From the NCBI GenBank assembly GCA_963965975.1, contig OZ014423.1:1364001-1428000 (forward strand): a stretch of DNA of 64,000 nt, in the 5' to 3' direction. The translations under genes and the position numbers were made by a program. The notes beneath the pieces were generated by a model that saw nothing but the letters and a program-made list of their open reading frames with translations, made no database searches and was not told the origin of the DNA. Source of the DNA: Xestospongia bergquistia. Taxonomy: Eukaryota; Porifera; Demospongiae; Haplosclerida; Petrosiidae. Positions 5,945-61,566 of the stretch are shown in pieces; position 1 is the first letter of the stretch; each line of letters begins with the position of its first letter.

Positions 5945-6084
5945 TGTTTATCTGTGATGGATAGAGTAGTGCTTCAATTTTATTATCAATCATGGTCAAA
6001 TCTGGCTTCCTATCTGGCTCATGGCCATAGGATCAATGGCAAATTATAATTCTAAAAGACATATATGCCCATTACCACGTGTCT

Positions 6085-6548: not shown

Positions 6549-7221
6549 TTAAGATTGACCAATAAAGATGGCCAAAACAATAAAGCAAGTGATAGAGAAG
6601 AAGGAAGGTAGAATCAAAGCAGCACTTGAGTAGAGCTCATTAAACCTTGCTTGAACTGCAGCTGCCTTGGTATTAGCATTAACAGCTGGAACAAAGATTA
6701 CATTAGTGTGTTATCATTAAAATATGACTACCTACTTGAGTTTCCAAGGACTCTAACTGTCATGTTAACATTACCAGTTCCACTAGAAGAGTCTACTGTC
6801 ATGGTTTGTTGTACTATTAATAGATCACTAGGAGAAGCATCAGTTACGCCTTCAGTGATACGAGTGGCAAAATTAGTCCTAGAGAACAATGGAGATATTA
6901 ACTGTTAGATATTGGGTATATTATTAGACTTTACCTGTCAAAGTTGACATCATACGAAAGTGTTAAATTAAGGGAATTAGAAGCATAATAGACCTCTTGT
7001 ATCTCACCACAATCAAACAAAGCTCCTCCTTCAGAAGCTGGCAAGTGAAGTCCAACTGAACGACCAATAACTATTGTAAAAGAAATACAAAATTAGACAG
7101 GAGACACAACTATTTAATGAATCTGTACATGTGAATACAAATAGAATCTAAAAATAGTATAGTATATATGAAGAGATAAGGGATTAGACTAGACAGGATA
7201 TAGGAGTCATTTGGGAGAATG

Positions 7222-7256
<35 letters not shown>

Positions 7257-10200: not shown

Positions 10201-10635
10201 TAATAGACATTTTGTTCAGACATAATGCATTAACGAATAGACAATTCCAATTGAAGTGCAACAATTACACATACATACATAATTGGTTCTATTGTAAACT
10301 ATTATGACAGTGTTAATAAGTGTTTATTATATTACCTACTGTTGTCATAGACAAAATACATTAAGTTTTAGAATCAATAAAAAGTGCCACATTATTATAA
10401 AAAAACATATTATGATGTCATCAGTACAAGTGCATAGGTACTACATAAAAACAACAAAAATATGAATATTTACTACTAAATGTATGTGATTTACTGAATA
10501 TTAGATTTATATGCATAATACATCAGACAATGCTGCAGTCATCTACATCTCCATGCAGGGCAATATACACTGACCTTGTGATGTGCTAATCATCACTAGT
10601 AGAGTACAAGACAACATTAGAAGTCCTCTATACAT
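6549..10635 (-). CDS. Cu-only SOD-repeat protein B, GPI-anchored (750 aa predicted)
   Basis: Nine exons in frame: 10575-10635, 9490-9581, 8758-9291, 7731-8519, 7595-7678, 7270-7546, 6935-7070, 6736-6878 and 6549-6685. Exon phases and several lengths equal those of gene A (for example the 84-nt exon), so the two are tandem duplicates. A signal peptide (MYRGLLMLSCTLLVMIS) leads four SOD-like repeats. Repeats 1, 2 and 4 carry copper ligands (VWHVH, KWHVH, KWHIH; GGHFDPF, GGHFNPY, GGHFNPF; GRSIKIHG, GRSIALHS, GRSVGLHL). Repeat 3 (ELPIHGIETIAGHS...QFLCATL) lacks them. The zinc ligands and long electrostatic loop of SOD1 are absent. The C-terminus is a GPI-type hydrophobic tail (ILPSFFSITCFIVLAIFIG). 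It probably sits on the cell surface. The roughly 1-kb first intron is unusually long for this locus. Confidence 0.88.
7225..7253. repeat. (CA)n microsatellite in an intron of SOD-repeat gene B
   Basis: About 14 uninterrupted CA dinucleotides directly follow the donor side of the exon ending at 7270. This is an ordinary microsatellite. Confidence 0.9.
9760..9900. repeat. Short tandem repeat in intron 1 of SOD-repeat gene B
   Basis: Three copies of a unit containing TAATGTCACCTAATA(C/T)ACC are seen at about 9784, 9820 and 9867. They are separated by 'acagacta' blocks, with a degenerate further copy near 10030. No coding capacity. Confidence 0.6.
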
Positions 10636-10827
10636 CTTAATGTTTCAAGATCCACGTAGAATGACCTAGAACGACCTAGAACAAGAGCAGGGAAGTACGA
10701 TTGTACACTATATATAGGTTTTTATATGCAGAAATAAAGGGAGTGGCTCGTCCTTCATGACACGACATTATAATTAGATTATACGAAATTTTATAGTATA
10801 CGGAGATGGGTGAGGTTTTAAGAAAAC
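10636..10827. promoter_or_regulatory. Bidirectional promoter of SOD-repeat gene B and CCDC149
   Basis: Only 192 bp separate the start codons of the two divergent genes, so both promoters must lie here. The segment holds a tandem 'acctagaac' pair near 10662-10684, a TATA-like 'actatatata' at about 10709 and a block that recurs almost intact in the PMM2 intron at 35.55-35.67 kb. Confidence 0.6.
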
Positions 10828-13800
10828 ATGGCTACCAATAGGAAGAAAATCAAAGAAACGAGAGAAGTAGTCTCACGAGAACAATATGAAACACTTCAAT
10901 CTGAGGTATGATACAAAAGATGTAGTTTTATCCGCTAAATTACATTCAATAGTAGTAGTTATTCTCTAATTAAAGCTAACATTAAAAATGTAGAGAGAAC
11001 TTGACTTATATAGTACTTTTTGTGTAATTGTCTTTAGTATGTTGCTTGTCAGCGGAAGCTACAGAGCAAAGAAGAGGCTATTCACATATTACATCGAGAA
11101 TTAGAACTGTCACAGGAAGAGAAGGAAGAATATGGACGACTGATGAATCACATGGTAATAAGAAATAATTTCTTTTAATTAACTTATAATTAGAGATGTG
11201 CTTCATACTTTCCTGTTATTTCCCAGAATGTCAACTTTCAAAATATCATATCCTAAAATGTCAACTTCTCAAAATACTAACTTTCATTATTGTATTAGAA
11301 TTAACTTTCAGATAATAACTTGATAGTACATCTAGTAATTGACCAAACAACAGTCTCTATAAATTATATTTTAGCATTATAGCCTTATATGGTCTTTGAT
11401 GGTTTTTGATGATACAAGAAGTATTTGTACAAACTAAGTAAGACAGTTCAGTATATAAAGCAGCAGTTTAGCAATGTTTACTCAGTTTATGATGGAATAC
11501 AACTTTTTACTACACACAAGATGGAGGAAAATATAGATATTATTAGAGGATATAGATATTATTAGAGAGGGAAAGGATGGTAAAGAATTTGGTGATGTTA
11601 CGATTGATTGTGCCCATTGGAGGATGACATTGTCAAAGATGTCAGAAGAAATCACAATTGTGTCCCAAAGAGAATCCTAAAGGATATTGTATGTTGTTGG
11701 GCTTTGAATTATTATAAATGGTATTATAATGTAACAAACTACATTATTACGTTGTTACATTATAATATTATATATTATAATGTAACAAACTATGTCTTTT
11801 TATAGTATAACTGACTTTCTTGATAGTTGACATTTTGGGAGATGGCATTTTGGAAAGTTGACATTTAGAGAGTGTTTGACATAATGGGAGTTGACATTCT
11901 GAGACCTAACCACTTTTCTTATGTTATTGATGATTTACAACACAGACCTACTGTTGATTACATATCAACTTTATCATACTATATCTCCAATATTAGAAAG
12001 ATTACTACTTAGAGGGTCAGTCATCTCTACCAAAATCTCCTGGCCATGACAGTACTTACGATGAGCTGATTGAGAGCCAAGATAAGGTACATGGTAATAG
12101 TTGATAGGAATTCCCTGATTTTGCCATGGCAACTGAAAATATGGTTGATTTGTTACCAAGTTACAGTGATCTTTGTTTAATAATGATTTAAGTTTGACAG
12201 TATGAATTGAACACAATATTAACAGTTCATTACACAGTAATATTTTTTTATGACTCAGTCAGATGATCTATCAGTCAGAGTAGTTCAACTTGAGGCTCTC
12301 ATACGACAAATTAGTCAAAAGCATAAAGATGAAGTACAGGTATATGGAATAATGAGTTAATAACTGTAGTATTAACTAATATAACTATCAATTTCTTTAT
12401 ATTATAATTTTTCTTTATTAGTCTTTGAAAGAGAAATTATCTCAGGCAAGAGAAGCTTTATCTTCTTCCTCGCCTTTGTCTGTTTCAACTGATGTCTCTG
12501 AGGAAAGACAAAGGTTGATTTCACAATTGGAATTATCTCAAAGTCAAGTATGTTATGGATTGATAACCAGTAGTGACTTAAAGTAATAGTATTGGGTCTG
12601 TATGTGTGACCTGATTTGCAAAAAGGGACCGTTTATAGCAAACATGTTTTAACAGCTGTCCCTTTTCACAACAGAAGTGTTCTCTTATTGCAAATCAGGT
12701 AGTATACTATTAGTATAATATTAGTATATTATTAGTATAATATTAGTATACTATTAGTATAATATTAGTATACTATTAGTATAATATTAGTATAATATTA
12801 GTATGCTATTAGTATAATATTAGTATGCTATTAGTATAATATTAGCATGCTATTAGTATAATATTAGCATGTTATAACTAAAAGTATTAATGATGACATG
12901 ATTTTACTATAATTCACAACTAACATTTGTAAATTATAGTATGAATTGAACACAATAGTTGCACTAGTTGTCTTTGAAGTTGTAACTACAAACTATTATA
13001 TAATATTACCTCACTTGGTATTGTTTGGTCTAATAATACATTGAGTCTAGTATATAACCAACTATTGATAATGAAACACATGTTCTTTTAATATTTGTTG
13101 TATCATTAGAGAGCTAGTATTTTGTTGTTGTATTAATATTAGTGCTATGAGTAAAATTGAATTAATGCTCAACATCTTTTTGTATAAAAAGTCAATAATA
13201 GTTGGAAACAGGTCCCAAAACTGTAACTATATCAAAAATTAATTTTAAACATTATACGACATTAATGACCAAGAAGGTGGGATGGACTTCAGATAGATAG
13301 AGAGAGAGAGACAGACAGACAGACAGATAGAAACAGAAATTGATCCCATATTGTCACTTATTTAGAATCTAACACTTGAAAGACAAATCCAGTCATTGGA
13401 AGATGAGAAAGAAGAGCTCTTGACAGAAGTAAGAGAAGATAGTACTTGTAATAGTTCCACTATCAATGATCTACAGAGAGACTACTTTGCTGGCAAATGT
13501 TCAACATTGACTAAAGTATTAGAAGAGAAAGAGAATTCACTACCACCATCACAGAGCACACTGGAAAAAATACTAGATGAAAACAGGTCCATAATAGTTA
13601 TCTGATATTGCATGGCTGGATATTTAAAGGTCTGGCTACATGAGACTAATAGTGATCATGTGATATGTTGTATTGATCATGTGATGTGCTCTCTCTCTCT
13701 CTCTCATGTGATAGACATCTAAAGATGGAGCTATTAGAGACACAAGCTGAACGGGACAGTGCTAAAAACAAAATTGATAGATATAAGGTTTGAGTCAACT

Positions 13801-14371
13801 GATTTGTTAATGATCTTAGTTAATTTTTTAGAGAGCAGTTGATAGAAGAAAAGGCAGAGAGACACAGAGCCAATCAATAAACTTAATGGGTACAGATAAA
13901 TTAGCAGGTAATAATGACAAAGGTCCCTCCCTAATTATTAATAGCTCATTTGTTAACTAGCTCTACGTCAGTCAGTGAAACGAGTACAAGAATTAGACTC
14001 ACTAGCTAATAGTCTCTCGGAAGAACTGAAAGAGAAGTCTTTAGCTATGAGTCATTTAAGAAAGACAAACAGGTAACAAGCACATGTTTGATAAAAGGAA
14101 AGATATATACTAGCTATTAATACTACTAGCAAACTCTTGATCTGTGTTTAGGTTGTTAGGTACTAGAATTGCTGAACTGGAGCACAGAATTAAAGTGCTT
14201 GAGATATCTGGTTTGTGGTCTACACCAGGAGGTGTGGAACACAAGTCTAATGAGAATCATTATGAACCAACTATCACATGGGAGGAAGTGGAGGAGGAAG
14301 TGAAAGAGGAAGAGGAAGGAGAAGGTATTGTTTTATTCATTATATTCATATTCAGTTTGTTTCTATTGTGA
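10828..14371 (+). CDS. CCDC149: Coiled-coil protein, CCDC149 homologue
   Basis: Nine exons join in frame: 10828-10905, 11038-11154, 12259-12339, 12422-12547, 13366-13586, 13715-13787, 13832-13907, 13961-14072 and about 14153 to the stop at 14371. The protein is almost entirely coiled coil. The C-terminal part (SHLRKTNRLLGTRIAELEHR, followed by a VLEISGLWSTPG motif) matches the C-terminal block of vertebrate CCDC149 (HQRQTNKILGNRVAELEKK, LEVSGLWSLPG), and this identifies it. Its function is unknown. The last acidic segment could instead be spliced at a GTATTG donor near 14325; I kept the open reading to the stop. Several mobile elements sit in its introns. Confidence 0.75.
11215..11915. mobile_element. 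Foldback-like inverted-repeat element in a CCDC149 intron
   Basis: The left end carries arrays of 'aaaatgtcaact' (about 11226-11275) and the right end carries the reverse complement, 'gttgacattttgg' (about 11825-11905). Several sub-copies are present at each end. The interior has no intact protein. This is the form of a non-autonomous foldback or MITE element. The exact ends and any target-site duplication are not clear by eye. Confidence 0.5.
12609..12700. mobile_element. 92-bp MITE with ACCTGATTTGCAA terminal inverted repeats
   Basis: The first 13 bases, ACCTGATTTGCAA, are mirrored by TTGCAAATCAGGT at the right end. Inside, 'aaagggac' pairs with 'gtcccttt'. It lies in a CCDC149 intron, is too short to encode anything, and abuts the minisatellite on its right. 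Confidence 0.7.
12700..12870. repeat. 11-bp minisatellite (attagtataat)n
   Basis: About 15 near-identical 11-bp units (attagtataat / attagtatact / attagtatgct / attagcatgct) run without a break. The units drift from one end to the other, with the 'gc' variants at the right. Intronic. Confidence 0.85.
13290..13335. repeat. GATA/GA/GACA microsatellite
   Basis: Compound simple repeat in the intron before the 13366 exon of CCDC149. Confidence 0.8.
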
Positions 14372-14792
14372 ATATTATTATTTTTATTATCTTGAGAATA
14401 CTCTTGGGGATACTTTACTCTTAGCACTTTTACACACACACACATGACTATAGAGTCACATGCAATGGGCCCTCTACTACATGCACAAGATGATCATTGT
14501 TTAGTCCATTCTACTACATAAAGTCATCAATATCAGTCAGTAAACCTCAAAAGACTAAAGTGACTTGTGCTCTTTTTATCACCATCAACTTCATAATTTT
14601 TTTATGAAATAATAACTTTATAAATATATCAGCAATAAAATTGTCCTATCAATAATTTTTGTTAATATAATAAAATGTAATAAATGTACCAGTTATAAAA
14701 GTGGCCTAGCAAGACTTTTAGCTAGTGTAAAAATATGCAGTAATAAAAGTGACCTAAGGTTAATGCAACAAAAATATGTTCTTCCTCTCACT
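14372..14792. other. Convergent intergenic stretch with no gene
   Basis: This lies between the stop codons of CCDC149 (plus) and SOD-repeat gene C (minus). It is AT-rich. The phrase 'ataaaagtg(a/g)cct' recurs at about 14695 and 14743, suggesting an old duplication. Nothing coding is seen. Confidence 0.6.
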
Positions 14793-16914
14793 TTAGAACT
14801 GGCCAAAAACAAGAACCAGAATAAGTAGACAAATCACAGAGATTGAAGGAAGGATCATTCCCACTCCACTATACATTGACTGGAGTGTAGCAGATTTAGT
14901 ATTAGCATCCTCCACTAATAAATAGTACAGAACATTGCATACTATGACCTAGACTGAACTTACCAGATGTACCAAGTACTTGGACTGTCATGTCCACTTT
15001 TCCAGTCTGAGATGAACGATCCATTGTCATCTGCTGGCGGATTATCAGAATATCATCAGGAGAGCTTCCCATGATGTTGTTTGAGATATTTTGAGTGAAG
15101 TTAGTCCTGGAAATATTATTTGTAAGAACTATGTACATGTTTTGTGATGTATATACCTCTCAAAGTTGGTATCATATGAAATACTAATATTTGCAGGTTT
15201 AGAAGCCTCAAAAACTTCTACTATCTCTGCACAATCCATCAAACCTGCTCCTTGGGAAGGTAGATGTAGTCCAATTGAACGTCCAATGACTGGTAAAAAT
15301 AAATGGAATAAAATTATGAGACAATGACTGTTTGATCTCTTACTGGAATAGTTAGCTGTGCCCCAGAGGTGTAGATTGTTGTCAGTATAAGTTACACTAC
15401 TACGACTTGCAGATGGAGGACTGATCTGTATCTGGCCATGTTTGCCACTTAGATCTCCACTACGACAACGCAACTGAGCATACTGAGAACACTCTGAAGT
15501 CACTGATGGTTCAACATAAACACTGAATGGATTGAAGATGTTACCAATGCTGTTAGTACAAGTCTGACCAGATACTGGTGGATTAATGTGAACATGCCAG
15601 AGATGATTGCTGGTCTATAAGGTGTATAAAGACAGTAGTTTATTTTATAATAGAGCTAACTTACTGGAGTGGCTTTAGAGTTGTTGTACCATATATCCAC
15701 AAATACATATGTAGCACCAAAGACACCATTTTCAAAATTTCTTTGAATCTATAGTATTATATAAAGTATCATTAATTTGTTTGTAGTTACACAGATCTGC
15801 TTACAAAATAAATGGCTCCTTTGACAGTATTGTTAAACTTAGCCTTTGCCATTTTGACTGATGCTCCTGTTGGATAGCGTGGCCACAGGGTAGAGCAAAT
15901 GTAATGAGTACCAGAAGAATTTTGCTTTGAATAACCCATTGAGTGTCCAGCAATTGTCTCTGTACCCTTGATAGGTAATTCAGAGACACGATTTTGACCA
16001 GTTGTAGTGAAGTTATATTTCCTTTTGAAATCTCCTACTGAGTATCGATCAGGAGTATCATCAGAGCCATCGAGACTTGGAACATACCCAATACAACTTG
16101 CCAAAAATAGTGGCTTCCTCACCAGCAACCTGTCTCATATAAATGGTACCTCCAATAGGATAGACAAAAGAGGCTTGGAGTGTAGTCACTCTAATATTTC
16201 TGTTCATAACTTCAGTGCTGGAGTAGATGGTAGTACATACATCTTGTGTGCCATGAATTTTAATGGATCGTCCTATTATTCCATTTTGGCCGAACAGAGT
16301 CAATTGACCTGAGTCATCAATGTGGTTAGAGGTACCAGTCATAAGATGTCCAAATTTTTTGCCTAAATCTCCAACTTCACATTCAGTTTTATTATTTGGA
16401 TTACAGTATGTAGAATATAAGCTACCCAGTTTAGCCTTAGCTCCAAAGGGATCAAAATGGTTACCAACTAAATTAGCACTGCATCGTAATTGAGGTGGAA
16501 GTGAGGTGTCAACTGGAAAATAGTGAATATGCCAGTGATGGACCATATTTGTCCCTCGAATATTAACCTAAAATTGAAGACAGTTAAGTACTTAATAAGG
16601 GTGTGCTAGGCCTATTATTTTACAGTGATATATATTGTCAATGTGACTCACTGTAATGTTCGTGTTGTTATTATTTTTATTCGGTATAAACTTGATAGTC
16701 CCTCGTATACCACGCATGTTAAAAGTAGCAATACCATAGACACCATCCTGACCTATGTATATAGAAATTGATAGAGTAATATTATGACTAATAGTTTAGT
16801 AGAAATCTACAACAATATTTAAATGCTCTTGCAAAAAAAGTCATTTGTCTAACTTTCTGATGTTCCAATCACTACTAGTAGAGTACAAGTCAGCAACAGG
16901 AGTCCTTTGAACAT
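14793..16914 (-). pseudogene. Cu-only SOD-repeat gene C, damaged by internal deletion and frameshift
   Basis: Paralogue of genes A and B with the same exon plan: 16854-16914, 16652-16752, then a fused block of about 15805-16567, then 15665-15748, 15344-15614, 15157-15289, 14964-15106 and 14793-14914. Repeat 1 is intact (HHWHIH, GNHFDPF, GRSIKIHG). Just after YWV (near 16085) the sequence jumps to the VPSLDGSDDTPD segment that in gene B lies inside the third repeat. All of repeat 2 is thus missing and the frame is broken, giving a stop near 16061. Downstream exons remain open and spliceable, ending in a GPI-type tail. Repeat 4 has GNIFNPF where paralogues have GGHFNPF, so one copper histidine is lost. 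Read as it stands, only a secreted one-repeat protein of about 220 residues is made. An assembly error at the junction is possible. Confidence 0.7.
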
Positions 16915-45606: not shown

Positions 45607-45704
45607 TAGACAGACCGAGCCCCACCCTTCTTTCTTGTTTATAAAGCAAGTTAGGCGTGGTCAGTTACTTAAATTTTTAACCCTTTAAGTCCAAGTAACT
45701 GGGG

Positions 45705-47583
45705 ATGGACAGAAAGCCAACTGATCTTGAGATTGTGGAAATATCCAAGCATCTCTACAAATGGGAAATTCTTGGAACACATCTTGGTATTACGAATCCT
45801 GAACAAGAAGCACTGAAAATAGACTACAGTAATCAGTATGACTGCCAGAAACAGCAATGTTTGTTTCTTTGGAGAAGAAAAAATGGTAGTGATGCTAAAT
45901 TGAGTGTCTTGACAGATGCGTGCCAACAAGCTGGTGAAAATGATATAGCAGAAAAAATACGAGCAATGCTTGGTGTAGTTAACGTAGCAAAAACCACACC
46001 CACTCCATTATCTGGTCAGTATGCATCCAGTGGTCCTGATACTCAACTGAATAATTTGGATGACCCACCCTCAGCTATTGTAAGAACAATTAATGACTTT
46101 AATATACATTGGTATTATTTTCATTGTAATATTTATGCCCCTATATTTCTGAGTTATTAAAGTGTTTTTCTTCATAGAGAGTACCTTTGTAATCAACCTT
46201 GAGTATAGTAAAATAAAATAAAATAAATCTCTTTAAATACAACTTATCAAAACAACATTTGTTTATATATTATTATGTGTCCTGTTCTATTTCAGAAACT
46301 ACGTGAAGTGGCTACTGATAGTCCTAGAACAGTTTCATCAGATCCTATCATACAACAAAATACTAATAATATACAAAGTACCAGTGCAGTTATAACTACC
46401 ACTACTGCTACTACTAGTAGTAATAGTAGCCAGCAACCTCTTGCCACTGCCACTATTATGACAACAGATACAACTAAATCTAGTATTAGTACTCATTCTG
46501 ATACTGTTATTGATGTTGATCCAAATACCTTAAGAAAGATCTTTAAACGTAATTCACCAGATCTAATTGCCGGGATTCAAGAACCAACTGACTTTGCTAA
46601 CAGACTAGAAGCTGCCTCCATTATTGATGAGATGATAACTGATCGCATCGTTACCACACCTGGTATGGCTCGTATTGATAAAGCTACTTTATTAATGCAA
46701 AATGTGAGAGCTAAACTTAGTACTAAAGATACCACTAATACCTTTATATCTTTGTGTGTCATTCTTAAACGTTATGCTACCACTAGTGAGATTGCAGAGA
46801 TGATGATGAGTGAAGCTGGTAAGAAATATTATGATTTTTATTATGTTATTTAAGTCTTTGTTATTTAGGTCTTCCATGGCCAGTTTCTCAAAGTCAGAAA
46901 CCTCTATCTTCTACAATTCCAGTGAGTTCTATAAAAAATATATTAAACTAGTTTCTTTCTTTCATAGCCAATGGTTTCTTCGAGACATGAACCAGCTCCT
47001 TTGAGGTTGTCAGAAGAGCCTAACATATTAGCTGTGAGTGAATGCAATATCAATTAAATCTTAATTTATTTTAATAGCAAGCTACTGTGAGACAAGTACC
47101 AGGTGTTCCTGTGATGCAACAAGAAGAACCTGATATATTTGCTAAGAGTATGTAACCAGTTTTGTTGATATTTTTATTCTACACACAACATATAATAGGT
47201 GATTTTTCAGAGTTTAGTAACATTGCAAAATATGGTAAACCTGGATTAAGTGATATGTTAAATTGGATTGTGTCTCAAGTCAGTTCTACATGTATAGTCT
47301 GGTACATGTGTTCATTTTGTTGTACACACAGGACCCCAGTGTATGGCAGGAGGTTGGAACTGAACTGGGTCTTTCACCAGGGGTACTTAATGGTTTTAAG
47401 ATGGATCTTTCTCTTGGTGGAAAACCTAGTCTCATGTTTAAGGAGGTTCTTGTTCGTTGGGAAAGGAGTATGTCAAAACCTTACACATGGCAGACTATCT
47501 TGGAAGCTCTCTCGTCTCCAAAAGTTGGACACCATAAACTGGCTAATAAGATTGCTGGTCATTTGAGAAATAAATATCTTTGA
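45705..47583 (+). CDS. Death-CARD-Death adaptor protein (472 aa predicted)
   Basis: Seven exons (45705-46079, 46296-46818, 46869-46921, 46968-47033, 47078-47147, 47199-47278, 47332-47583) join in frame. Residues ~5-90 form a Death-fold domain (LEIVEISKHLYKWEILGTHL ... CLFLWRRKNGSDAKLSVLTD). A Thr/Ser-rich linker follows. Residues ~205-295 look CARD-like (RKIFKRNSPDLIAGIQ ... ANRLEAASIIDEMI ... KATLLMQNVRAKLS). Residues ~365-472 are a second Death domain (VWQEVGTELGLSPGVLNGFK ... WQTILEALSSPKVG). No nuclease, NACHT or kinase is attached. It is likely a cytoplasmic scaffold joining Death- and CARD-type partners in immune or cell-death signalling. The middle domain is the least certain. Confidence 0.75.
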
Positions 47584-47676
47584 ATTAATTTTTTATTAAA
47601 TTTGTAGTTAACAAGATCCCCACTTGAATATTTACTAAACTAGGCCCGTCCTATTTTACGTATTTTTGTTTGCATA

Positions 47677-48344
47677 ATGGCTGGTTCTGGGAAAGATGTA
47701 GATATGAAATATAACTTGTTGGAACAGCAAGTTCCTTCAAGGCAATCAGATAATGGTAAGTTATAATCTCCTTCTACACTACCTACATAGTTGTTGTGTT
47801 TTCTATCTGTTTAGATGAATTTTCAGAATTTAGTGACGTTGCTAAATATGGCAAGCCTGGATTAAGTGACATGTTAAACTGGATTGTAGCTGAGGTCAGT
47901 TCAATTTCCTCAAAGCATATTATATATTGTAAGCTCTGGATCCTATACAAGGTTATATTAGACACTGTAACACATAACTCATGCTGATATTTGCTCTCAA
48001 GTTTGTATTACACAGTAGATTGTATTAACAAGCTAAATACTTGTGTGATTCCCTTGGCTAACCCATACTGAACCTATGTTTTACATTTATTAAAACAGGA
48101 GCCTGGTATATGGCAAGATGTTGGAACTGAGCTGGGTATCTCAAATGGCGTTTTAAATGGTTTCAAGATGGATCTTTCTTTTGGTGGAAAGCCTAATTTA
48201 ATGTTCAAAGAAGCTTTGATTTATTGGGAAAAGAAGCAGACAAAACCATATACATGGCAGACTATCTTAAAGGCCCTCTCATCTCCCATTGTAGGACAGC
48301 ATCAGTTAGCTACTAAAGTTGCTGATAAGCTTAGACGAAGATAA
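47677..48344 (+). CDS. Single Death-domain protein, duplicate of its neighbour's C-terminus (134 aa)
   Basis: Exons 47677-47755, 47815-47894 and 48099-48344 join in frame. From the second exon on it closely matches the C-terminal Death domain of the preceding gene: FSEFSDVAKYGKPGLSDMLN, VGTELGIS, LNGFKMDLSFGGKPNLMFKE and KPYTWQTILKALSSP. The intron positions and phases are the same. The N-terminus (MAGSGKDVDMKYNLLEQQ) is new. It looks like a partial tandem duplication that freed one Death domain, which could compete with or bridge the longer protein. Only 94 bp separate it from the upstream stop and 85 bp from the CLP1 start. Confidence 0.8.
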
Positions 48345-48428: not shown

Positions 48429-51400
48429 ATGGCTGCATTATCTGTGTCAGAGAAAGAGGTGAGCATAATGTAACTTAATTCCTAAGTCTGTACAATGTCA
48501 GGAGGAAGATACTCGTCCCATGAAAGACTGGATTTTAGCGCAAGAGTCTGAGCTGAGATTAGAAGTACACGATGACAACAGCATAGATATTCAAGTACAG
48601 ATAGTAATGACTAGAGCTGTTGTTGTTACATTTCTTTCTATAGTTACTGTTTGGTGTAGCTGAGGTCTTTGGTACAGAGTTAGCAAAGAACATGAGATAT
48701 ACTATTGGCAACCAGTCAAAGATAGCCATTTTTACATGGACTAGTTGTACCTTGAGAGTATCCTAATGCCAACTGACCTAATATCTTATTGTCTTTACTT
48801 CCTACACTGTCTTTGTCAGTTGTTGCTTGACTCTCCTTACTGTATCAGATATTGGGGACTCCAGATGTAGCTTATGTTTCCACGGAAACACCCATGTCAA
48901 TATATCTCAATACCCATATTGCTATAGACCAACTAAGACACAAAGCAGGATTAAATGATACTCTTGGACCAAAGGTATCGATCATGAGATTGTCCATGTT
49001 GAATTTTGTTTCCTAGGTAATGGTATGTGGCCCTACTGATGTTGGGAAGAGTACAATTTGTCGCTTGTTATTGAATTATGCTGTTAGAATGGGTCGACAA
49101 CCAATCTTAGTTGACATCGATGTTGGACAGGTTATTAACTAGTTATATCTCTAGTTATTAATTATTACTTATTTAGGGACATATATCCATACCAGGTAGC
49201 ATAGGTAAGTAAGGAATTAGTAAAAAAAATTTTGTTGTTAATGATACAAATATGAATTTGTATATGTTTTTCTTATTTTTTTGTGAAGGAGTTTTACCAA
49301 TTGAGCGACCAGCTGGTATTGAAGAGGATGAGTTCTCAAAAGCAGCTAGTTTGGTTTTCCATTATGGACACAATAATCCAGGTGCTAACTTAAAATTGTA
49401 TCACACTTTGGTATCAAAAGCAGCTGAAATGGTCAATGAGAGAAATAAAGCTAATCACAAGAGTAAGTCCATTTATACAATACCATTTTTTATGTTGTGA
49501 TAAAATCTGTTTGGGGTAAGTGTTTGTAGAGTTACATTCTTAGAAGATGACATAGTTTTAACTAGTCAAATAGATTGTTGTAACTTTTGTACTTGTGTGC
49601 TATTAATTGCCTGAGATTAATTTTTTTAGTCCAGCAAATTCTTATTGGGTAATAAAACAAAAGCAACAATATATCAAGTTATGCAGCAGTTTTAAAATGC
49701 AATATATTAATTAATGATATATTAATTTCAGCAGAAATATTTAATGTCAAATTGTGTCATGGCTTTTTCTTTGGCTTGGTTTTGGGGTCTTTTCCTGGTT
49801 TAGTTTTGGGATCTTTCCCAGGTTTGGGAATAGGTTTTGGTCTGGGAGTTGGTTTCATGTTGGTACTTGGTTTTGGATCAAGTTTTGGTCTGGGAGTTGG
49901 TTTCATGTTGGTACTTGGTTTAGGATCAAGTTTTGGTCTGGGAGTTGGTTTCATGTTAGTACTTGGTTTTGGATCAAGTTTTAGTCTGGGAGTTGGTTTC
50001 ATGTTGGTACTTGGTTTTGGATCAAGTTTTGGTCTGGGAGTTGGTTTCATGTTGGTACTTGGTTTTGGATCACATTTTGGCCTGGGAGTTGGTTTCATGT
50101 TGGTACTTGGTTTAGGATCAAGTTTTGGTCTGGGAGTTGGTTTCATGTTGGTACTTGGTTTTGGATCAAGTTTTGGTCTGGGAGTTGGTTTCATGTTGGT
50201 ACTTGGTTTAGGATCAAGTTTTGGTCTGGGAGTTGGTTTTATGTTGGTACTTGGTTTAGGATCAAGTTTTGGTCTGGGAGTTGGTTTTATGTTGGTACTT
50301 GGTTTAGGATCACATTTTGGCCTGGGAGTTGGTTTCATGTTGGTACTTGGTTTAGGATCAAGTTTTGGCCTGGGAGTTGGTTTCATGTTGGTACTTGGTT
50401 TAGGATCAAGTTTTGGCCTGGGAGTTGGTTTCATGTTGGTACTTGGTTTAGGATCAAGTTTTGGTCTGGGAGTTGGTTTCATGTTGGTACTTGGTTTAGG
50501 ATCACATCTTGGCCTGGGAGTTGGTTTCATGTTGGTACTTGGTTTTGGATCACATTTTGGCCTGGGAGTTGGTTTCATGTTAGTACTCGGTTTTGGATCA
50601 AGTTTTGGTCTGGGAGTTGGTTTCATGTTGGTACTTGGTTTAGGATCAAGTTTTGGTCTGGGAGTTGGTTTCATGTTGGTACTTGGTTTAGGATCAAGTT
50701 TTGGTCTGGGAGTTGGTTTCATGTTGGTACTTGGTTTAGGATCACATTTTGGCCTGGGAGTTGATTTGATGTTGGTATTTGGCCTGGGAGTTAGTCTGGG
50801 GCTTATTCTGGGCCTACGACTAGAGTTAGGATTTGTAATGGGGTGTGGTCTGGGAGTTGGTCTTGGACTCACTCTGGGCTGACGTTTATGACATGGTTTA
50901 TGACCTTTAGACCTGGTAGGCTTAATTTTCTTTCCAGAACCCAAATCCCCATCATAACTGTCGTAGTCATCATTAGTTTTATCATAGGTATCATCATCGT
51001 CATCATCATCATTGTCATTGTCATCATCATCATCATATCTGCAACGACATTTCTTGTGTGATTTCTTGTTATGTTGGGGTTTAGGACTTGGTAGGATACA
51101 GACAGGAATTTGAAGTTCAGAAATATCCTTACGACAGCTAAATTCTCCATCTTCTCTGATGCAGATACATTCCTTACAACCTTTGGGTGGAGTTTTAACA
51201 CATTTTGATCGAGTTACAACTGTGTTGTTGTGCAGACAGAGAGGACGAAACTCCACACAGAACTTGCCTTTATCAGTACAATTTTGCATCTCACAGGGTA
51301 GATGGCTTAACCCATGCTTGCGTTTATGACTCCTATAGTGTTTTCTTCTGTGAGCTTCAGTGGTAATGACAAATAAAGTGACAATAAGAACAACAAATAT

Positions 51401-54400
51401 AACTTGAAATTTCATTGTTCCCCTTCTTTTATTTGCTAAATTATTTGCTAAATGTTTTTTTTGCACTATCTTGCTGCAGTCTGCATGATTTTGATTTGCA
51501 AAACAACTCTCTTTTATAGTCATTGTGAAGTATGTTGATGATATTTAACTTTTCCTGTCAGATGGGATATCAACAGTCATTATAATCACATCAATTAGTT
51601 GAAATGTGCAAGTGTTTGTGTGGGATTGACTAAGTGCGGCGTGTAAAATGAGTAAAATTGTGGGCTCACAGCTGGTTTTTGTTGAGACAATGGATAGAAA
51701 TAGTTATGTGGTCATTCTTATAGTATGTTATATAATTTTGAGACAATTGGGCTACTTACTAAGTAGACAATTGGAACCCTGACTAACAAATGATTATTAT
51801 ATTTATTCTAATTATAATCTAACAATATGGGAAGAGCACATTTTGTCACTTGTTATTGAATTGTGCTGTTAGAATGGGTCGACAACCAATCTTAGTTGAC
51901 ATCGATGTTGGAGAGGTTATTAACTAGTATATCTCTAGTTATTAATTAGGGACATATATCCATACCAGGTAGCATAAGTTTTTTTGCTGTTAATGACACA
52001 AATATAATTGTATTTTTGTGAAGGAGTTCTACCAATTGAGTGACCAGCTGGTAATGAAGAGGATGAGTTCTTGAAAGTAGCTAGTTTGATTTTCTATTAT
52101 GGACACAAAGCACTTAAAATTGTATCATGCTTTGGTATCAAAAGCAGCTGATATAGCCAATGAGAGAAATAAAGTTAATCACAAGAGTAAGTCCATTTAT
52201 ACAATACATTTTTTATGTAAAATCTGTTTGGGATAAGTGTTTGTAGAGTTAGATTCTTGGAAGATGACATAGTTGTTAATTAGTTCTTATTGGATTTAAA
52301 CAAAAAGCAGTTCAATATATCAAAGCAGTTCAATATATCAATATACATAAGGTATGCAGCATGCATTATATAGAATGTATTAATTTCAGCAGAAACATTT
52401 ATTTAATGTCAAATTATGACTTTGGTTTGGTTTTGGGAGCTTTTCCTGGTTTCATATTAGTACTTGGTTTGGGAATTGGTCTTGGTCTCAATCTGTGCCT
52501 ATGACGAGAGTTGGTATATGTAATCTGGGAGTTGGTCTTGGTCTCACTCTGTGCCTACGCTTATGACATGGTTTGCGACCTTTAAACCTTGTAGACTTTA
52601 TTTTCTTTCCATTCATTGTATCATCACCAGAGCCCAAATCTCCATCATACCTGTCGTAATCATCGTTTGATGTTTTATCATTGCTATCATCATCGTCATC
52701 ATCACTGTCATAATCATTGTTTGTTTTAGCATCATCATCATCATCATCATCAATGATGACAACAATATCAACGTCATATCTGCAGTGACATTTCTTGTGT
52801 GATTTCTTGTTATGTTGGGGTTTAGGACTTGGTAGGATACAGACAGGAATTTGAAGTTCAGAAATATCTTTACGACAGCTAAATTCTCCATCTTCTCTGA
52901 CGCAGATACACTCCTTACAACCTTTGGGTGGAGTTTTAACACATTTTGACTTCGTTACAGCTGTGTTCTTGTGCAGACAGAGGGGATGAAACTCCACACA
53001 GAATTTCCCTTTATCAGTACAATTTCGCATCTCACAGGGTAGATGGCTTAATCCATGCTTGCGTTTGTGACTCCTGTAGTGTTTTCTTATATGAGCTTCA
53101 GTGGTAATGTCAAATAAAGTGACAATAAGAACAACAAATATAACTTGAAATTTCATTGTTCCCCTTCTTTTATTTGCTAAATGTTTTTTTGCAATATCTT
53201 GTTGCAGTCTGCATGATTTCGATTTGCAAAACAACTCTCTTTTATACTCATTGTGAAGTATGGTGATGATATTTGGCTCTTCCTGTTAGATGGGATATCA
53301 ACAGTCATTACAACCATATCAATTATTTGCAATACACAAATGTTTGCGTGGGATTGACTAAGTGCGGTGTGTACAATGAGTAAAATTATGGGCTCACAGC
53401 TGGTTTTATTGAGACAATGGAAAGAAATAGTCATGTGGTCATTCGTATAGTATGTTGCATAGTGATTGCTGTTATATTTTGAGACAATTGGGCTACTAAG
53501 TAGACAATTGGAACACTGACTAAACAATGATTATTATATTTATAATATAATCTAACAATATATTGTTTGTTATTTTCTGTTATTATTGTACTGCTATTAT
53601 GGTTTTAAAAGGCACTTGATATATCCTCTCTATATATTACAACAATCTCTATTAGCAAATGACTTAGAGTAGAGAGAGTACACATAGTTGATGTCACCTT
53701 TCACCTTTGGGATAATTGCTTCTGCGTTATCCATTTATGGAATTGTGATAATATATTTTAATGTGACAGGTAGAGACTTGCGTTGTGACCCTATGTTGTT
53801 GTCCTGTAGTAAGTAGAGGTTTTTTGAGTAATGATGACAATTGGACCTTGATTCCCTCTCTTTATAATCCTCTGTGAATTGTTGTAAGAGATTAAACAAG
53901 CTTGTTATAGAGGATCTACAAGATATCAGTACTAAATAACATAGACCAAGCACAACATGCATTGTTTTAAATTTTAGTTCAGTTAATTTTATTGGGTGAT
54001 TTAAATAAGAAAGACATTAATGAATAATGCAGCAGTTTTAAAACGTAATAAATGCAATAAATGATATATAAATTTCAGCATGTATTGTTGAATTGTTATG
54101 ACGTTTCATTTTAGGACCTAGCCCCTCCATGTTTGGGTTTGGGCCTTTTGGTCTGGAAGTTGATTTGAAATTGTGACTTGGTTTGGACTTGGTGTACTGC
54201 CTTTGGTTCAGGTTGCTGGTGTAGGCCTAATTCTATTTCCATTGTCTCTATCGTCCAAATCTCCAGTATATGTCCTACTGTGACCATTATTATCATCATA
54301 ATCATCATTATTTCTGTCGTGAGAGTTCTTATGTGATTTAGGATGCAGACAGGAATTTGAAGTTCAGAAATATCTTTACGACAGCTAAATTATCCATCTT

Positions 54401-57400
54401 CTCTAACACAGATGCACTCCTCACAACCTTTGGGTGGAGTTGATGACAAACACTCATTATAGTATACGCTATCCAAGGGTTGTCTATATTGAGTAGTGTT
54501 ATAATCTCTTCATTAGTCTACCTTTCTTACCTAATAAGGTTATGGAATGGAAGTAAGAAACGATATTTGTAGACTTTATCCTACAATGGACATCTACTGA
54601 AAATATAATATGTTTTCATGATAGTAACTGTGGAGATAGGTAACCTTGTCTTTTAACACTATCCCATTTTGTTAGTTGCATTAATTTGGAATGTACTCCG
54701 ATGACATGTGACTATGTATTCACTTAACTTTGATCAGTAGTCACATGGTTTTAGTAACCATGGCAATGAACACAGCTGCCAAAAACCATTAAGAGTACAC
54801 GATAATTATTTTAAACTTGTAGTTATGATTGTTTGTTATTTGTATCTACTCTAGTAATATGATATTGATGTACACATGTATGTCAATCATGTGATGATAA
54901 TGTTTAGTTAAGATAATGTGTATTTCTCATTAACTTTTTGACACTATCATACAATGTTTAGCAGAAGACAACATTCCTACTAGTAGTACTAATTCAGTAG
55001 AAACAAGAGATGTATTCCCATATCTTAAGTTAGTTATAATATTTCCCAGCATGTTGAACAAGCAATACCACGCCTACTTTGTAACATTTATATTATATTA
55101 GTGTTTTAAATACTATAAATTGGGAAAATTCTGTTACCTTAATCATTTTTTTAAATTTATGAAAATAATTTTTGCTTTTCATGATTTATGCATTTTATAA
55201 TTATAGTTCATCAGGTCATATTTTCATCATTATAACTAACCACAAAAACTTGTGTACAGATTTACTATAGCCATTACATATATTCATAATACAATCTTCA
55301 TTAAATCCATACTATTCAATAATTTAGCTTGTAATATTGTGCCAATAGCTTTTTATTTTCCACTCAGTCAACTATATAATTAGTGAGTGTAGCCACCACA
55401 CCCACAAACTGAAATTGTTGCTGGTGTATGATTGTTATTTAAACTAGTCAAAGTCAGCAGCTCTATTTGATGTGTACAGCACTTTAATTAAAGAATTTAA
55501 CACTGACATGTGGTAATGCATTCTTTCTATTTCCCTGTTGTCTCCCTCGGATTTATAATTCTAACAACTTTTCTTACATTTACAAACTTGGAAAGGACAC
55601 TGAACTTTTGAGTTTATTTGGCCTATTAAAGTTAATATAGTGCTGTGTCAGTACAGAATGCAAGTATAATATTGAATGAGTTTCTAGCAATTAATGGTAT
55701 GGATTATTCTCCTATCCTATGGAAGGTATCCTGTAGGTGGCTTGTATCCCTGAGGTGGCCGGTATCCATTAGGTGGCCGATATCCCCCAGGTGGCCTAGG
55801 TGGCTGGTATCCCATAGGTGGCTTGTATCCCGAAGGTGGCCGGTATCCTGCGGGAGGATAATATCCTTTGGTAGAGCCTTTCCAGTTTTCAGGCATATAT
55901 ACCCTTTGAATAAATCGACCTTTACGTTGTCCCCTTCCATTGTTATTTTTTTGTCCTGGGCAAAGTGGCTCGGAGGTATCAACAGGCTGAACATTAACCA
56001 ACATTACACGACATGTTGTATGATGTTTGTTGAAGACACAAATTTGGTTTGTAACACAGTTACATTTCTGACGATAACGATTATTATCATTACGGCAACG
56101 AGAGATAGTCTTAACACTATTGTCAGAGTGACAAGTAAATGTATGCTCAACACAAACTTTTCCAGTATCACAGTTACGTAATTCACATGGTTGTCTGCAG
56201 GTACCATTATCACAGGCCCTCAAACCATGATGTTTGTGATGACGATGTCCTCCTCCTTTACCTTTATGGCCACCTCCTTGAGCTTCTATAGTCAGGATCA
56301 AGAGAGTAACAATGGCAACAGTTGCCAATAACTTCATGATAGCAGTCTTAAAACAATAATGTTGTTAGTATAGGAAGAATTGCTGCAGTCTGCACAATTG
56401 TAGCCTTGAATTTACTATACTCTTCACAAAATCTGATAATACACAACTCTTTTCAGGTTAAAACCACTATTGTGACCTCAACTTAATTAGTAATTCCTGA
56501 CTAATTCTTACTTATATGGAATCTGACTAAAAATGATATTATAAAGGAACAAACCACATTGGTAGGTATTGTCTAGACAGTGAATAATAGTTGTAAGAAT
56601 TGTCTCAATATTTAGCTATAATACTATTATTGTTATGGTAAATTGTTAAAATTTATTGTTTTGAAGACTGGAGAGCTGACAGATATACTATGAATGATAC
56701 TAGCTTATAAGAGTTTATCAATTAGTCACACCTATTTTAAATAAAATTTACTAAACCTATTGCTCTCTATGGGAATTAGTTTAAGTTACCATAGGAACTC
56801 GTACAATCGTAGATATACCAAATAGAATACATGGTACGCATGTATACCAAAACAATCAACAATCTTGGGACTGTTGGGACTATACTTGTTGTAAAAATGA
56901 TTAAAACATGACAACATTGGACTGTCTGAATAAAACAAGGAGATACCTATTAATAATATGGGTACTGATATCTAAATAATATTTTTATTTGTGAATACTT
57001 CACTTTAATGTAAACTATGACAAAGTGATTGCTTAGTAGGTCACTAGATTATTTCATGACAGACAGATACTTGTGTGCTTAGTAACATTTTGCTAGGAAA
57101 CCTGAAAATCAAGCCAAGCATATGTATAATAACTATTACTACAACTCAATGACCACATGTCACATGACCATTATTATTTCAAGCAATGACAGGTATTACA
57201 TGTCACATGACCATTATTATTTCAAGCAATGACAGGTATTACATGTCACATGACCATTATTATTTCAAACAATGACAAGTAATTTACTAACTATCTATTA
57301 ACAATTATTGAATCCATTGCTAATGTTCTCTCTAATGTTGCATAATGCACTGATCATGCTCTATCTAGTTTACTAACCATCTATTAAAAATTATTGAATC

Positions 57401-60400
57401 CATTGCTAATGTTTCTCTCTAATGTTGCTATTGAGATCATTTAGTTGCTATGCAAAAGTTGAGCTCTGTTTTATAACTTCTTTATTAATTTTAAACTGAT
57501 ACCACACCTTTTTTTGAATATGTGTATATAATACAAAATGGTGGGTCCTTCTTGTATGATGATGACATCACTATGTGTCATAGGGTTAATAATGGTAGTG
57601 TGAATGCTTTAAATAATGTTATCATGTATGATGACATCACTATGTGTCATTTCATGATGATATCATCATAGTCAAATTACACCAAGAACCACCCAAATGA
57701 TAGTGAAAATTTTATTTTTATCTGGACAACCAATACTAAAATAAACAAACCAAACAAAATTTTTATATAATACAACAACTAAAGAAAAGAATCTGTAACA
57801 ACAGAGTCCCTGATCTTTTAATCAGAGATCTCATCAGTTGATGCAGCAAATAAAAATAGATTGATTCACCCTCCAGACTATTATAGTAAGATAGACTGTC
57901 TTGCTATTACTGACAGGTATGTTGATAGTAGCCATAGGCAGCCATGCTTCTACTTCAATTACTACATTTTATGTAGCTTCCTATTATAATGTCTTTAAGT
58001 AGAGAGATAAGAATTGATTTGATTGTGTAAAACCTTTTAGTTTGTTTACAATTTTTATTATTGGTTATCCAGATAAAAGTGACATATCCTTCTTATATCT
58101 ACTACCTTTCCACTTAAAGACTTTTACCATTTGTATTGTGCGTTGTTAATAATTTTTATATGTACTCATGTGTTACAGGTCTATAACACACTTCATTTCA
58201 CTCGACAATTATTATTTAAAGAATGCATATATTTGTTTGTGGCAGTGCCTTTTAATTTTACACCAAGGCAACTATATAATTAGTGGGTGTGATGACCATG
58301 CCCAAAACCTAGAATTGTTGTGGCTGCATAAAATAGTCAAATAGTCAGCAGCTCTCTATTGTTTTATACAACATGATGATTAAAGAAGTTAATACAATTA
58401 TATGGTGGTGATGTAGTTTCATATCACTTTCCCTGTCTACCTTTGATTTGATAGGCCAAATAAACTCAACAGTTGTTTTTAGTTTTGTAAATGTAAGAAA
58501 AGTTGTTAGAATTCAAAAAACAATTCAACATTAATGTAGTGCTGTATCACTATAGAACTCAAGTATACAAAAGTTGAATGATTTTATAATCAATTAATGG
58601 TTGAGTGATTCTTCTATCTTGTGGGAAGTCTCTGGAAAGGCTGTTCATGACTTTGGGTATATGTATACCTCAAACAGATTGACCACAACGAGGGTTATTT
58701 TTATTTTTTTTGTCCAGGGCAGATTAAGTGGCTCAGAGGTATCGACTGGTTGAGTATCAACTAACATATCACAACATGTTGTATCATCTTTATTGAAGAT
58801 AGAAATATTTGTAGTAGTTGTAAATGTTTGTAGTATAGTTGCAATTTTCATGATAATAAGCATTAGTGTCACAGCAACGAAAGGTATTCTTCCTTAACAT
58901 TGTTGTCAGAGGACCAAGTAAATTTATGCTCAACACCCAGTATCACAACTGTATAATTCACCTGATTGGTACTATTAATGCAGTCCTTTAAACTATTGTG
59001 ATCATAATGAGGTCCCACCCCTCTCATGATCACCATCACAATGTTTTCCTTCTTGAGCTTCTATTGTTAGGATCAAGAGAGAAATAATGTCAGTAGTTGC
59101 CAGTAACTATTAACACCAGCTGTTTTCTCTCTCATAGTAAGACTGTGCCTTTGATACAACACTTATGTCGCTGTATAATTACATTCAATTTGATCATTCC
59201 CTTTAAATTATCTGCTTCCCTCTGATTAGTTTTAAAAACTATAACAACATTTCTTACACATACAAAATTGATATGTAATAAAAAAACTGAAATGTTGACA
59301 AGACCTAGCAATATTATTATTATTATTATTATTGTTGTTGTTGTTATTGTATTATGTTAAGTAGTATAGTCAGTGTAAAACTGAAGTATACAAAAGGTAA
59401 ATGAGTTACAATGGCATAGATGGGGATCAGTCTTCAGGCATAGACTCAATTTGTATATGTCGACCAAGTCGACCACCTCTTTGGTGATTACCATTATGTC
59501 CTCCATGATGTCCTCCTCCGTGGTGACCGCCATGATGTCCTCCTCCTTGGTGGTCACCATGATGTCCTCCTTGGTGATTACCATGATGTCCTCCATGATG
59601 TTCTCCTCCTTGGTGATGACCATGATGTCCTCCTTGATGATTACCATGATGTCCTCCATGATGTTCTCCTTCTTGGTGATGACCATGATGTCCTCCTTGG
59701 TGATTACCATGATGTCCTCTATGATGTTCTTCTCCTTGGTGATGACCATGATGTCCTCCTCCTTGGTGATCACTGTGATGTCCTCCTCCTTGGTGATCAC
59801 CATGATGTCCTCTGTGGTGATCCCCATGGTAAGGGTTATTTTTTTGAGGGCAAAGTGGTTCAGAAGTATTAACAGGTTGAACATTAACTAACACGTCACG
59901 ACATGTTGTATCTTCTTTTTTATGAACACAAATTTGGTTTTTATTACAGTTGCATTTCTGGCGATAATGATGATTATCGTCACGGCAACGAGAGATAGTC
60001 TTAACACTGTTGTCAGAGCGACAAGTAAATGTATGCTCAACACAAACTTTTCCAGTATCACAGTTATGTAGTTCACATGGTTGTCTGCAGATACCATTAT
60101 CACAGTCCTTCAGACCATGATGTTTGTGATGTTCTCCTCTTTTATCTTTGTGGACACCTCTTTGAGCTTCTATAGTCAGAATCAAGAGAGTAACAATAGC
60201 AACAGCTGCCAATAACTTCATGATGGAGTATAAAAGACAACAACAGCTATCTTTGTCTTCTATCTCACTAAGACTGCTTGTTTGATAAACCACAATGATG
60301 TCATTTAATTTCCTCTTCCTGTAAAAATAGTATTGATCATGTCAGTAGTCTTGTATAAACAATATTGTTAACGTACCTAACTTTATACATGTTAATATAC

Positions 60401-61515
60401 TTAATATAACTATATATGTCATCAAGCCATACTTCAATGTAATATGTTGTAAACATGTACCTTAAAAGGAATGTTTTCATAACTACAGTTTGGCTTCAGT
60501 AGTAATCACTCACTGTTAAATTCTTACAAATATTGTATGTCTCGTCATCATAATTTTGAAATCTGTCCTATTAGTAAAGTACTAATATATTAACAAACTT
60601 TCTCTTTAACAGAAAATAATAGAAATGACTCCAAGGTCCTCCAACAAAGGACTCTTTGGAGAATCTATAAATATGGCTACATTCTCACAAACAATTAAAT
60701 ACATACTGGAGTGTTACATTACTTGTGGTGGGATAAAGTAACTCATCATAATTAGTTTGTATATTCTGTAGACATAATATGTCTCTATCTCTTGAATATT
60801 GTGATGAATATATCATATGTTCTTCAATAACACGACAATTATAAATATCATGCCACACACAGTGGGTCATCTTTTGATGCTAAAGATGATTGGTCTGTAT
60901 ACGAATGATCTTTGATATGAATTTTGAACAAGACCAAGGGAATTACTCACTGTTATGGAAGTAACAGTGAATAATTCCATTGTGGTATTACAAAAGACTA
61001 TGGAAAATAGACTTGTTTCATTGTTCAATTGTCTATTGTTTTTTTTTTAAATTTGCTTGTTGATGCGGTTGAGTGAGATGGCTAGAATTAGAGTATTGGA
61101 CTTCACTTATTTTAAACTTGTTTGAATTATATTAAAAACATATAATAACTGGGTATGTATCACAACTTTCATAATCAGATTGAGAACACAAGTGGACTAA
61201 CAACTATTGGTGTTAACTTCTGTTTTTGTTCTCTTCAAAATGATATTTTAAACTTATAATGTGTTTATCATTATAAGGGACACTTTGTACTTTCAATAAT
61301 TGTATTATATGTAAGTATATTAATGTGTGTGTGTGTGTATGCTATATGTGACTGGCCTTGTGAAGTATCTGCTTTGTATTATTGAATCACTGATGAGTAA
61401 CTTGTCCAAAGGAAACCATAGAAACCATACAATAAATAAGTCAATAACTGGTTTCATTACTACAACTAGTTGTGTTGGTAATTACATTTGGTTGTAGAGT
61501 ATCATTATTGGGTAT

Positions 61516-61566
<51 letters not shown>

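What the first reader, a model, noticed from the sequence alone, without database searches (positions are those of the whole stretch)
49463..61565. Nested family of secreted proteins with one Cys-domain and interchangeable low-complexity tails inside a CLP1 intron
Seen: four opposite-strand genes and two relics lie inside a single 12.1-kb intron. All intact members have a signal peptide and a related cysteine framework (PCExxNC ... K.CVE ... C.C ... LC/VC), but the tails are unrelated: Pro/Lys/Thr 16-mers, Asp-rich, GYxPP and HHG. Known: sponge glassin is His-rich, silica-associated proteins are often polybasic or polyanionic, and Gly-Tyr-Pro tails occur in cross-linked adhesives. Inference: this is a locus-specific set of extracellular skeletal, spongin or adhesive matrix components, generated by duplicating an anchoring module and replacing its tail. 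I know of no described family with this combination.
Basis: partly seen in the sequence, partly recalled or inferred. Interest (0 to 1): 0.9.

Follow-up and report, generated by a model that had tools for sequence, protein, structure and literature searches.

The report
Sponge secreted-protein family inside an intron
Inside one intron of a housekeeping gene, a siliceous sponge carries a small and apparently lineage-restricted family of secreted cysteine-domain proteins with fast-growing repeat tails, probably parts of its extracellular matrix, though where they act has not been tested.

Summary
The observation mostly holds. A 12.1-kb CLP1 intron (49463-61565) carries four intact single-exon antisense genes (A-D) and two relics. 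Searches of the 146-Mb genome with tails masked find these six and nothing else. The A/B and C/D cysteine domains are homologous (hhalign E 2e-9) and under purifying selection. No family over a Pfam cut-off and no PDB or Foldseek relative was found; five relatives turned up among 5.77 billion proteins. A silicatein-like exon points to a siliceous demosponge.

What fails is 'unrelated, interchangeable tails'. A and B share Asp-rich and Lys/Pro stretches; B's end is frameshifted. D's His-Gly array sits inside, and C's GYxPP array beyond, a C-terminal segment they share. Tail types recur in other records' proteins, and one relic is intact elsewhere (P0008). Tails grew in place by repeat expansion. 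Gene B arose by tandem duplication of a block that also carried CLP1 exons, now a pseudo-exon copy.

Best function (inferred, untested): secreted extracellular-matrix proteins, built like glassin (single exon, nested, conserved domain plus variable repeats) but not shown to be its relatives.

The parts
49463..61565 (+). CLP1 intron holding the family (host gene on + strand)
   Evidence: GT/AG ends read; joined flanking exons match Pfam CLP1_P and CLP1_N
49757..51415 (-). gene A, 552 aa, single exon: leader, His/Lys/Arg linker, 10-Cys domain, Asp-rich stretch, Lys/Pro/Thr 16-mer array
51098..51295 (-). Cys domain of A (residues 41-106)
   Evidence: coordinates; alignment A1
49834..50782 (-). 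48-bp (16-aa) tandem array in A, 19.8 copies, 95% matches; 5 of 19 full units carry Cys instead of Leu
52488..53156 (-). gene B, 222 aa, tandem duplicate of A, without the 16-mer array
52839..53036 (-). Cys domain of B (residues 41-106)
   Evidence: coordinates; alignment A1
52412..52487 (-). out-of-frame remnant of A's Lys/Pro tail downstream of B's stop
   Evidence: read against A's tail
51828..52286 (+). pseudo-exon copy of the CLP1 exons at 49043-49567, carried along in the duplication that made B; stops in the frames read
   Evidence: 397 of 429 aligned columns identical, 68 gap columns
54100..54480 (-). relic 1, A/B subfamily; counterpart of intact P0008
   Evidence: P0008 matches it at 6e-39, A, B and P0007 at 2e-22 to 2e-21
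55717..56337 (-). gene C, 206 aa: leader, His-rich linker, 12-Cys domain, GYxPP tail (8 GY units, the last incomplete)
55960..56214 (-). Cys domain of C (residues 42-126)
   Evidence: AF2 model
55883..55920 (-). C-terminal segment of C shared with D, upstream of the GYxPP array
58590..59110 (-). relic 2, C/D subfamily
59427..60221 (-). gene D, 264 aa: leader, His-rich linker, 12-Cys domain, His-Gly array, shared C-terminal end
59850..60104 (-). Cys domain of D (residues 40-124)
   Evidence: alignment A1
59476..59828 (-). His-Gly repeat array of D (139-residue tail holds 48 His and 45 Gly)
59428..59465 (-). C-terminal segment of D shared with C, downstream of the His-Gly array; ends in TGA where C reads TGG
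51471..51485 (-). TGCAGACTGCAGCAA element, 33 nt below the TATAAA of A
53199..53213 (-). TGCAGACTGCAACAA element, 33 nt below the TATAAA of B
56380..56394 (-). TGCAGACTGCAGCAA element, 25 nt below a TATAGTA of C

Best explanation
A lineage-restricted family of secreted proteins in a siliceous demosponge, built on one novel disulfide-rich domain and nested antisense in a CLP1 intron. The family grew there by tandem duplication (one duplication copied a block holding CLP1 exons plus gene A and made B), with losses. Inside the C-terminal regions, short motifs expanded by tandem slippage into different repeats: Lys/Pro/Thr 16-mers, GYxPP, His-Gly. Most likely mechanism (inferred): the folded Cys domain and its basic His-rich linker anchor or oligomerise the protein in an extracellular organic matrix, while the disordered tails give that matrix bulk, charge and binding (polycation/polyanion in A, a metal-, silica- or polyanion-binding His-Gly tail in D, a Tyr-Pro tail suited to cross-linking in C; the Cys-bearing repeats of A could form intermolecular disulfides). 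Shown: genes, homology, purifying selection, duplication, tail growth, single-locus restriction. Inferred: secretion, matrix role, tail chemistry.
For: Genes and host intron. Homology A/B-C/D: plus reciprocal recovery at this locus with tails masked. Purifying selection: A/B domain dN 0.036, dS 0.223 (Fisher p 6e-4); C/D residues 1-127 dN 0.101, dS 0.271 (p 3e-3). Within A's array synonymous variants exceed expectation: 17 synonymous and 10 nonsynonymous departures over 10.7 and 37.3 sites. Duplication with CLP1 pseudo-exon. Tails grown in place. Tail types matched in other records' proteins. Shared start-region element in A, B and C. Silicatein-like exon. Architecture parallel to glassin, a silica-associated sponge protein: passages of PMC10282587 and PMC10772126.
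Against: No expression, localisation or proteome evidence. Signal peptides were not tested with a predictor. Repeat tails of this composition also occur in antimicrobial and metal-binding proteins (recalled). The AF2 models are weak (C domain mean pLDDT 64 with a core near 80; B domain 52). D lacks the shared start-region element and has no AATAAA/ATTAAA within 260 nt of its stop. dN/dS rests on two pairs of paralogs only.
Confidence: 0.5

Rival explanations
1. Secreted defence or nutritional-immunity proteins: a disulfide-rich core with cationic Pro-rich (A), His-Gly-rich metal-chelating (D) and GY/Pro (C) tails that bind microbes or metals. Birth, death and tail change would then follow from conflict with microbes.
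For: Tandem birth and death (two relics, one of them intact elsewhere), basic Pro-rich repeats and a 48-His tail, small Cys-rich secreted domain. Pro-rich and His-Gly-rich antimicrobial peptides are recalled, not looked up.
Against: dN/dS below 1 in the domains (0.16 for A/B, 0.37 for C/D), no sign of diversifying selection in these two pairs; the tail types are matched in other records rather than turning over freely; the padloc and NCBIfam libraries were not run, so families there were not excluded.
Confidence: 0.2
2. Silica-specific matrix proteins, a demosponge counterpart of glassin: the His, Lys and Asp tails drive or template silica polycondensation in or around spicules.
For: A silicatein-like gene is present. 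Glassin is likewise single-exon, nested in another gene, secreted, with a conserved domain and species-specific His/Pro/Ser/Thr repeats (passages).
Against: PMC10772126 (passage) argues that demosponge skeletal diversity comes from silicatein isoforms and not from several unrelated silicifying proteins. In glassin the conserved part is C-terminal, here it is N-terminal. C and B have no His-rich tail. No spicule proteome was searched.
Confidence: 0.2
3. One reading: one anchoring module duplicated and fitted with unrelated, swapped-in tails.
For: Cys-domain identities do not group by tail type: C-P0005 0.89, C-P0003 0.83, D-P0005 0.84, C-D 0.82, so some exchange between domains and tails (gene conversion) is not excluded.
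Against: Shared C-terminal segment in C and D, shared Asp and Lys/Pro stretches in A and B, no donor found in the genome, tail types matched in other records.
Confidence: 0.07
4. Artefact: repeats that happen to be open, no real proteins.
For: A's array is also open on the + strand (408-aa ORF), as repeats often are. Two family members are dead.
Against: Purifying selection in the non-repetitive domain, relatives at 59-98% identity in other records, leaders and start-region elements in place.
Confidence: 0.03

Closest known systems
Glassin of hexactinellid sponges (seen in passages of PMC10282587 and PMC10772126)
   Same: Sponge; single exon; nested inside another gene in A. vastus and O. minuta; signal peptide; [quoted passage not shown]
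   Different: Glassin's conserved part is C-terminal and its repeats form HD, P and HT domains in one protein; here the conserved Cys domain is N-terminal, the chemistries are spread over paralogs, and the animal carries a silicatein-like gene. Sequence homology was not testable: no glassin sequence was held
Perisilin and hexaxilin (PMC10772126, passages and abstract start)
   Same: Proteins of sponge skeletons; perisilin is secreted and His-rich
Silicatein/cathepsin L family (Peptidase_C1)
   Same: Present in this genome
   Different: A catalytic protease fold; the family here has no match to PF00112 or any Pfam family over its cut-off
Extracellular Cys-rich modules such as follistatin-like, Kazal, VWC, pacifastin and antistasin (considered from memory of their Cys patterns)
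   Same: Small disulfide-rich secreted modules with a C-x2-C-x-C stretch (A/B) or C-x4-C-x5/6-C start
   Different: No Pfam model of these reached the reporting limit and no fold match

Membership tests
glassin | single-exon gene nested in another gene | tested here: met
   for glassin, passage of PMC10282587
glassin | conserved C-terminal domain with repeats upstream | tested here: not met
   the conserved Cys domain is N-terminal, repeats follow it
glassin | His/Asp, Pro and His/Thr repeat domains in one protein | tested here: not met
   composition by segment: His-Gly only in D, Asp and Lys/Pro/Thr in A, GYxPP in C
glassin | sequence homology to glassin | not testable with these tools
glassin | occluded in silica and precipitates it | not testable with these tools
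   needs proteomics and bench work
any curated domain family (Pfam-A) | score over the curated cut-off | tested here: not met
   strongest sub-cut-off row is PF05887 at E 0.0016, 18.8 bits against a cut-off of 100, in A's tail
any fold of a solved structure | significant structural match of the C domain model | tested here: inconclusive
secreted extracellular matrix protein | N-terminal signal peptide | tested here: inconclusive
   hydrophobic leader in A-D (mean Kyte-Doolittle 2.9-3.2 over residues 3-15); no predictor run
secreted extracellular matrix protein | found in matrix or skeleton | not testable with these tools
   no expression or proteome data

The most novel reading that the evidence does not exclude
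This is a demosponge counterpart of glassin evolved independently: a single-locus set of nested, single-exon matrix proteins that divides among paralogs the His-, Asp- and Pro-rich chemistries that glassin combines in one chain, all on one new cysteine domain, working alongside silicatein in spicule or spongin assembly.
Probability: 0.17. Interest if true: 0.75.

Novelty: new variant of a known kind. Interest (0 to 1): 0.45.

Why it matters
If these are matrix proteins they give a compact, genetically clean case of how animal skeletal or coat proteins diversify: one folded domain kept by selection, tails regrown by repeat expansion, all inside one intron so that order, relics and the CLP1 pseudo-exon record the sequence of duplications. 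It would also show that nested, single-exon, repeat-tailed secreted genes arose in a siliceous demosponge as well as in glass sponges (glassin), which bears on whether silicatein acts alone in demosponges.

Tried and rejected
Relatives in IMG/VR with C's domain (no pattern match) and with the profile A1 (58 pattern matches, none confirmed); in GTDB contigs with A1 (41 pattern matches, none confirmed); in phage records with C (none). PDB sequences: 4 chance-level rows with C (best E 0.18), 0 with the profile. The pattern for the usual silicatein motif CGASYAF found only three one-mismatch places that are not silicatein (backwards control 1 and 1); the Ser-type site came from reading the Peptidase_C1 hits. 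A follistatin/Kazal, VWC or pacifastin identity for the domain was considered from memory and found no support. B-domain AF2 model too weak to use. Papers: searches seen as listings with abstract starts; PMC10282587 and PMC10772126 seen in passages only. No paper in those listings was seen to describe this family; that is not proof of absence in print.
Full report
What is there. The flanking exons at about 48.5-49.46 kb and 61.57-62.5 kb are CLP1: the joined translation of most of them matches CLP1_P at 3.9e-67 and CLP1_N at 6.2e-26. The intron begins GTAAGT at 49463 and ends in a CA-repeat and AG at 61565. On the opposite strand lie four single-exon ORFs: A 51415-49757, B 53156-52488, C 56337-55717, D 60221-59427, and two relics near 54.1-54.5 and 58.6-59.1 kb. 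Each intact protein starts with MK and a hydrophobic leader ending in T(T/I)EA, a basic His-rich linker of 19-22 residues, then a domain with 10 (A, B) or 12 (C, D) Cys. No signal-peptide predictor was run.

Is it one family? Yes. Profile comparison of C/D-type against A/B-type gives probability 96 and E 2e-9. In all four pairwise comparisons 0 of 5000 shuffles that keep each Cys in place reach the observed score. In the whole genome, a B domain without leader and tail finds B, A, relic 1 and, at E 0.06, C; a C domain finds C, D, relic 2 and, at E 0.03, B and A; nothing else appears at E<=10. Full-length B finds C at E 0.002. These searches score only first-look candidates (4 and 5), so a very divergent copy elsewhere could be missed.

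Are the genes alive? A against B, residues 23-111: dN 0.036, dS 0.223; C against D, residues 1-127: dN 0.101, dS 0.271, both with fewer nonsynonymous changes than expected (Fisher p 6e-4 and 3e-3). Among the 19 full 16-mer units of A there are 17 synonymous and 10 nonsynonymous departures from the commonest codon, over 10.7 and 37.3 sites. Upstream of A, B and C stand a TATA-like box and, 25-33 nt below it, TGCAGACTGCARCAA. That 15-mer occurs three times in the genome, all here; the backwards control gives one; by my arithmetic about 0.5 is expected at equal base frequencies. It was chosen after I saw it in A and C, and A and B are recent duplicates, so the independent weight is one A/B-C pair: 3 of 2000 shuffles reach the A-C upstream score, 12 of 2000 the B-C score. 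D shows no such element (859 and 285 of 2000 against A and B).

How the locus grew. The 49.04-49.57 kb CLP1 exon region has a copy at 51.83-52.29 kb on the same strand, 397 of 429 aligned columns identical with 68 gap columns, and stops in the frames read. A and B and their flanks are 90-94% alike in the same order. So a block with CLP1 exons plus one A/B gene was duplicated in tandem. Relic 1 is matched best by P0008 of another record (6e-39, against 2e-22 for B and P0007 and 2e-21 for A), including its Asp-rich and C-terminal parts: dead here, intact there.

How the tails grew. A has both an Asp-rich stretch and the Lys/Pro/Thr array. B has the Asp-rich stretch, and past its stop lies the Lys/Pro tail out of frame with a single KPSTNM motif. 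P0008 has the Asp-rich stretch and one KPTPRPK motif. C and D share 38 nt coding GRxIQ..xMPE (0 of 2000 shuffles). In D the His-Gly array lies before this segment and the protein ends just after it at TGA; C reads TGG there and goes on into GYxPP. P0005 has D's layout with its end ([14 protein letters not shown]), and P0003 has C's. DNA of the A, D and C tails finds no other place in the genome (simple repeats are skipped by that search). The relic 2 comparison for the C-terminal segment was inconclusive (2 and 62 of 2000 shuffles reach the score with C and D). The Cys domains themselves do not group by tail type: of four sites that split C, D, P0003 and P0005 two against two, two support grouping by tail type, one C with P0005, one C with D. 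Some gene conversion is therefore not excluded.

Who else has it. Among 5.77 billion proteins three searches give five relatives: P0002 (98% to C), P0007 (97% to B), P0003 (69%), P0005 (75%), P0008 (59%). P0002 and P0007 both report a longest contig of 327,215 bases, probably the same contig of the same or a sister species. A 552-aa relative of A could not appear in the B search, whose candidates are limited to 0.55-1.75 times the query length. No relative was found in IMG/VR, GTDB contigs or phages, as expected for an animal gene; sponge genomes and transcriptomes could not be searched, so the breadth of the family in sponges is unknown.

What animal. A Peptidase_C1 gene on C9 reads CGCSYAF at the active site, Ser where cathepsins have Cys, with HAMVLIGYG and NSWG following. 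By recalled silicatein features this is silicatein-like and points to a siliceous demosponge.

What it does. Segment charges: A's tail 80 Lys, 33 Arg, 40 Asp, 119 Pro in 443 residues; D's tail 48 His and 45 Gly in 139; C's tail 10 Tyr, 18 Pro, 14 Gly in 79. Leaders, a disulfide core and disordered repeat tails fit extracellular matrix proteins. The closest described architecture is glassin: single exon, nested in another gene, conserved domain with species-specific His, Pro and Ser/Thr repeats (passages of PMC10282587), signal peptide (passage of PMC10772126). Nesting alone is ordinary: 12.4% of A. vastus genes, and typically 5-10% in other genomes (same passages). I put matrix function at about 0.5, silica-specific function at 0.2 as a special case or rival, and defence at 0.2.

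Verdict. A real, coherent and apparently new lineage-restricted family with an unusually readable duplication record; the tail-swapping idea is not supported and the matrix idea is untested. Interest 0.45.

Noticed in passing
window 51828-52286 (+): Pseudo-exon copy of CLP1 exons inside CLP1's own intron, 92.5% identical over aligned columns, with donor-like GAGTAAGT kept; could be spliced into CLP1 transcripts by error.
   Followed up: partly
window 4344-16567 (-): Several ORFs repeating a Cu/Zn-superoxide-dismutase-like pattern (HWHxH..., GGHFDPF, VGDLSGKxG, GRSIxxH), perhaps a multi-domain SOD protein (recognised from memory, not searched).
   Followed up: no
window 45699-48300 (+): Repeated ORFs that look like death domains just upstream of CLP1 (recognised from memory).
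   Followed up: no
G000:C9:1502757-1523415: Tandem array of cathepsin L-like exons, CGSCW type where read.
   Followed up: partly
G000:C9:3183978-3187133 (L021, L026): Adjacent silicatein-like genes, one with Cys (CCSCYAF) and one with Ser (CGCSYAF) at the catalytic place: a possible cathepsin-to-silicatein pair.
   Followed up: partly
window 57155-57281: Three tandem copies of a 43-bp unit, 97% alike, between C and relic 2.
   Followed up: no
window 50300-50760 (-): 5 of 19 units of A's array carry Cys in place of Leu (TGT against CTT), which needs more than one base change and spread within the array.
   Followed up: no
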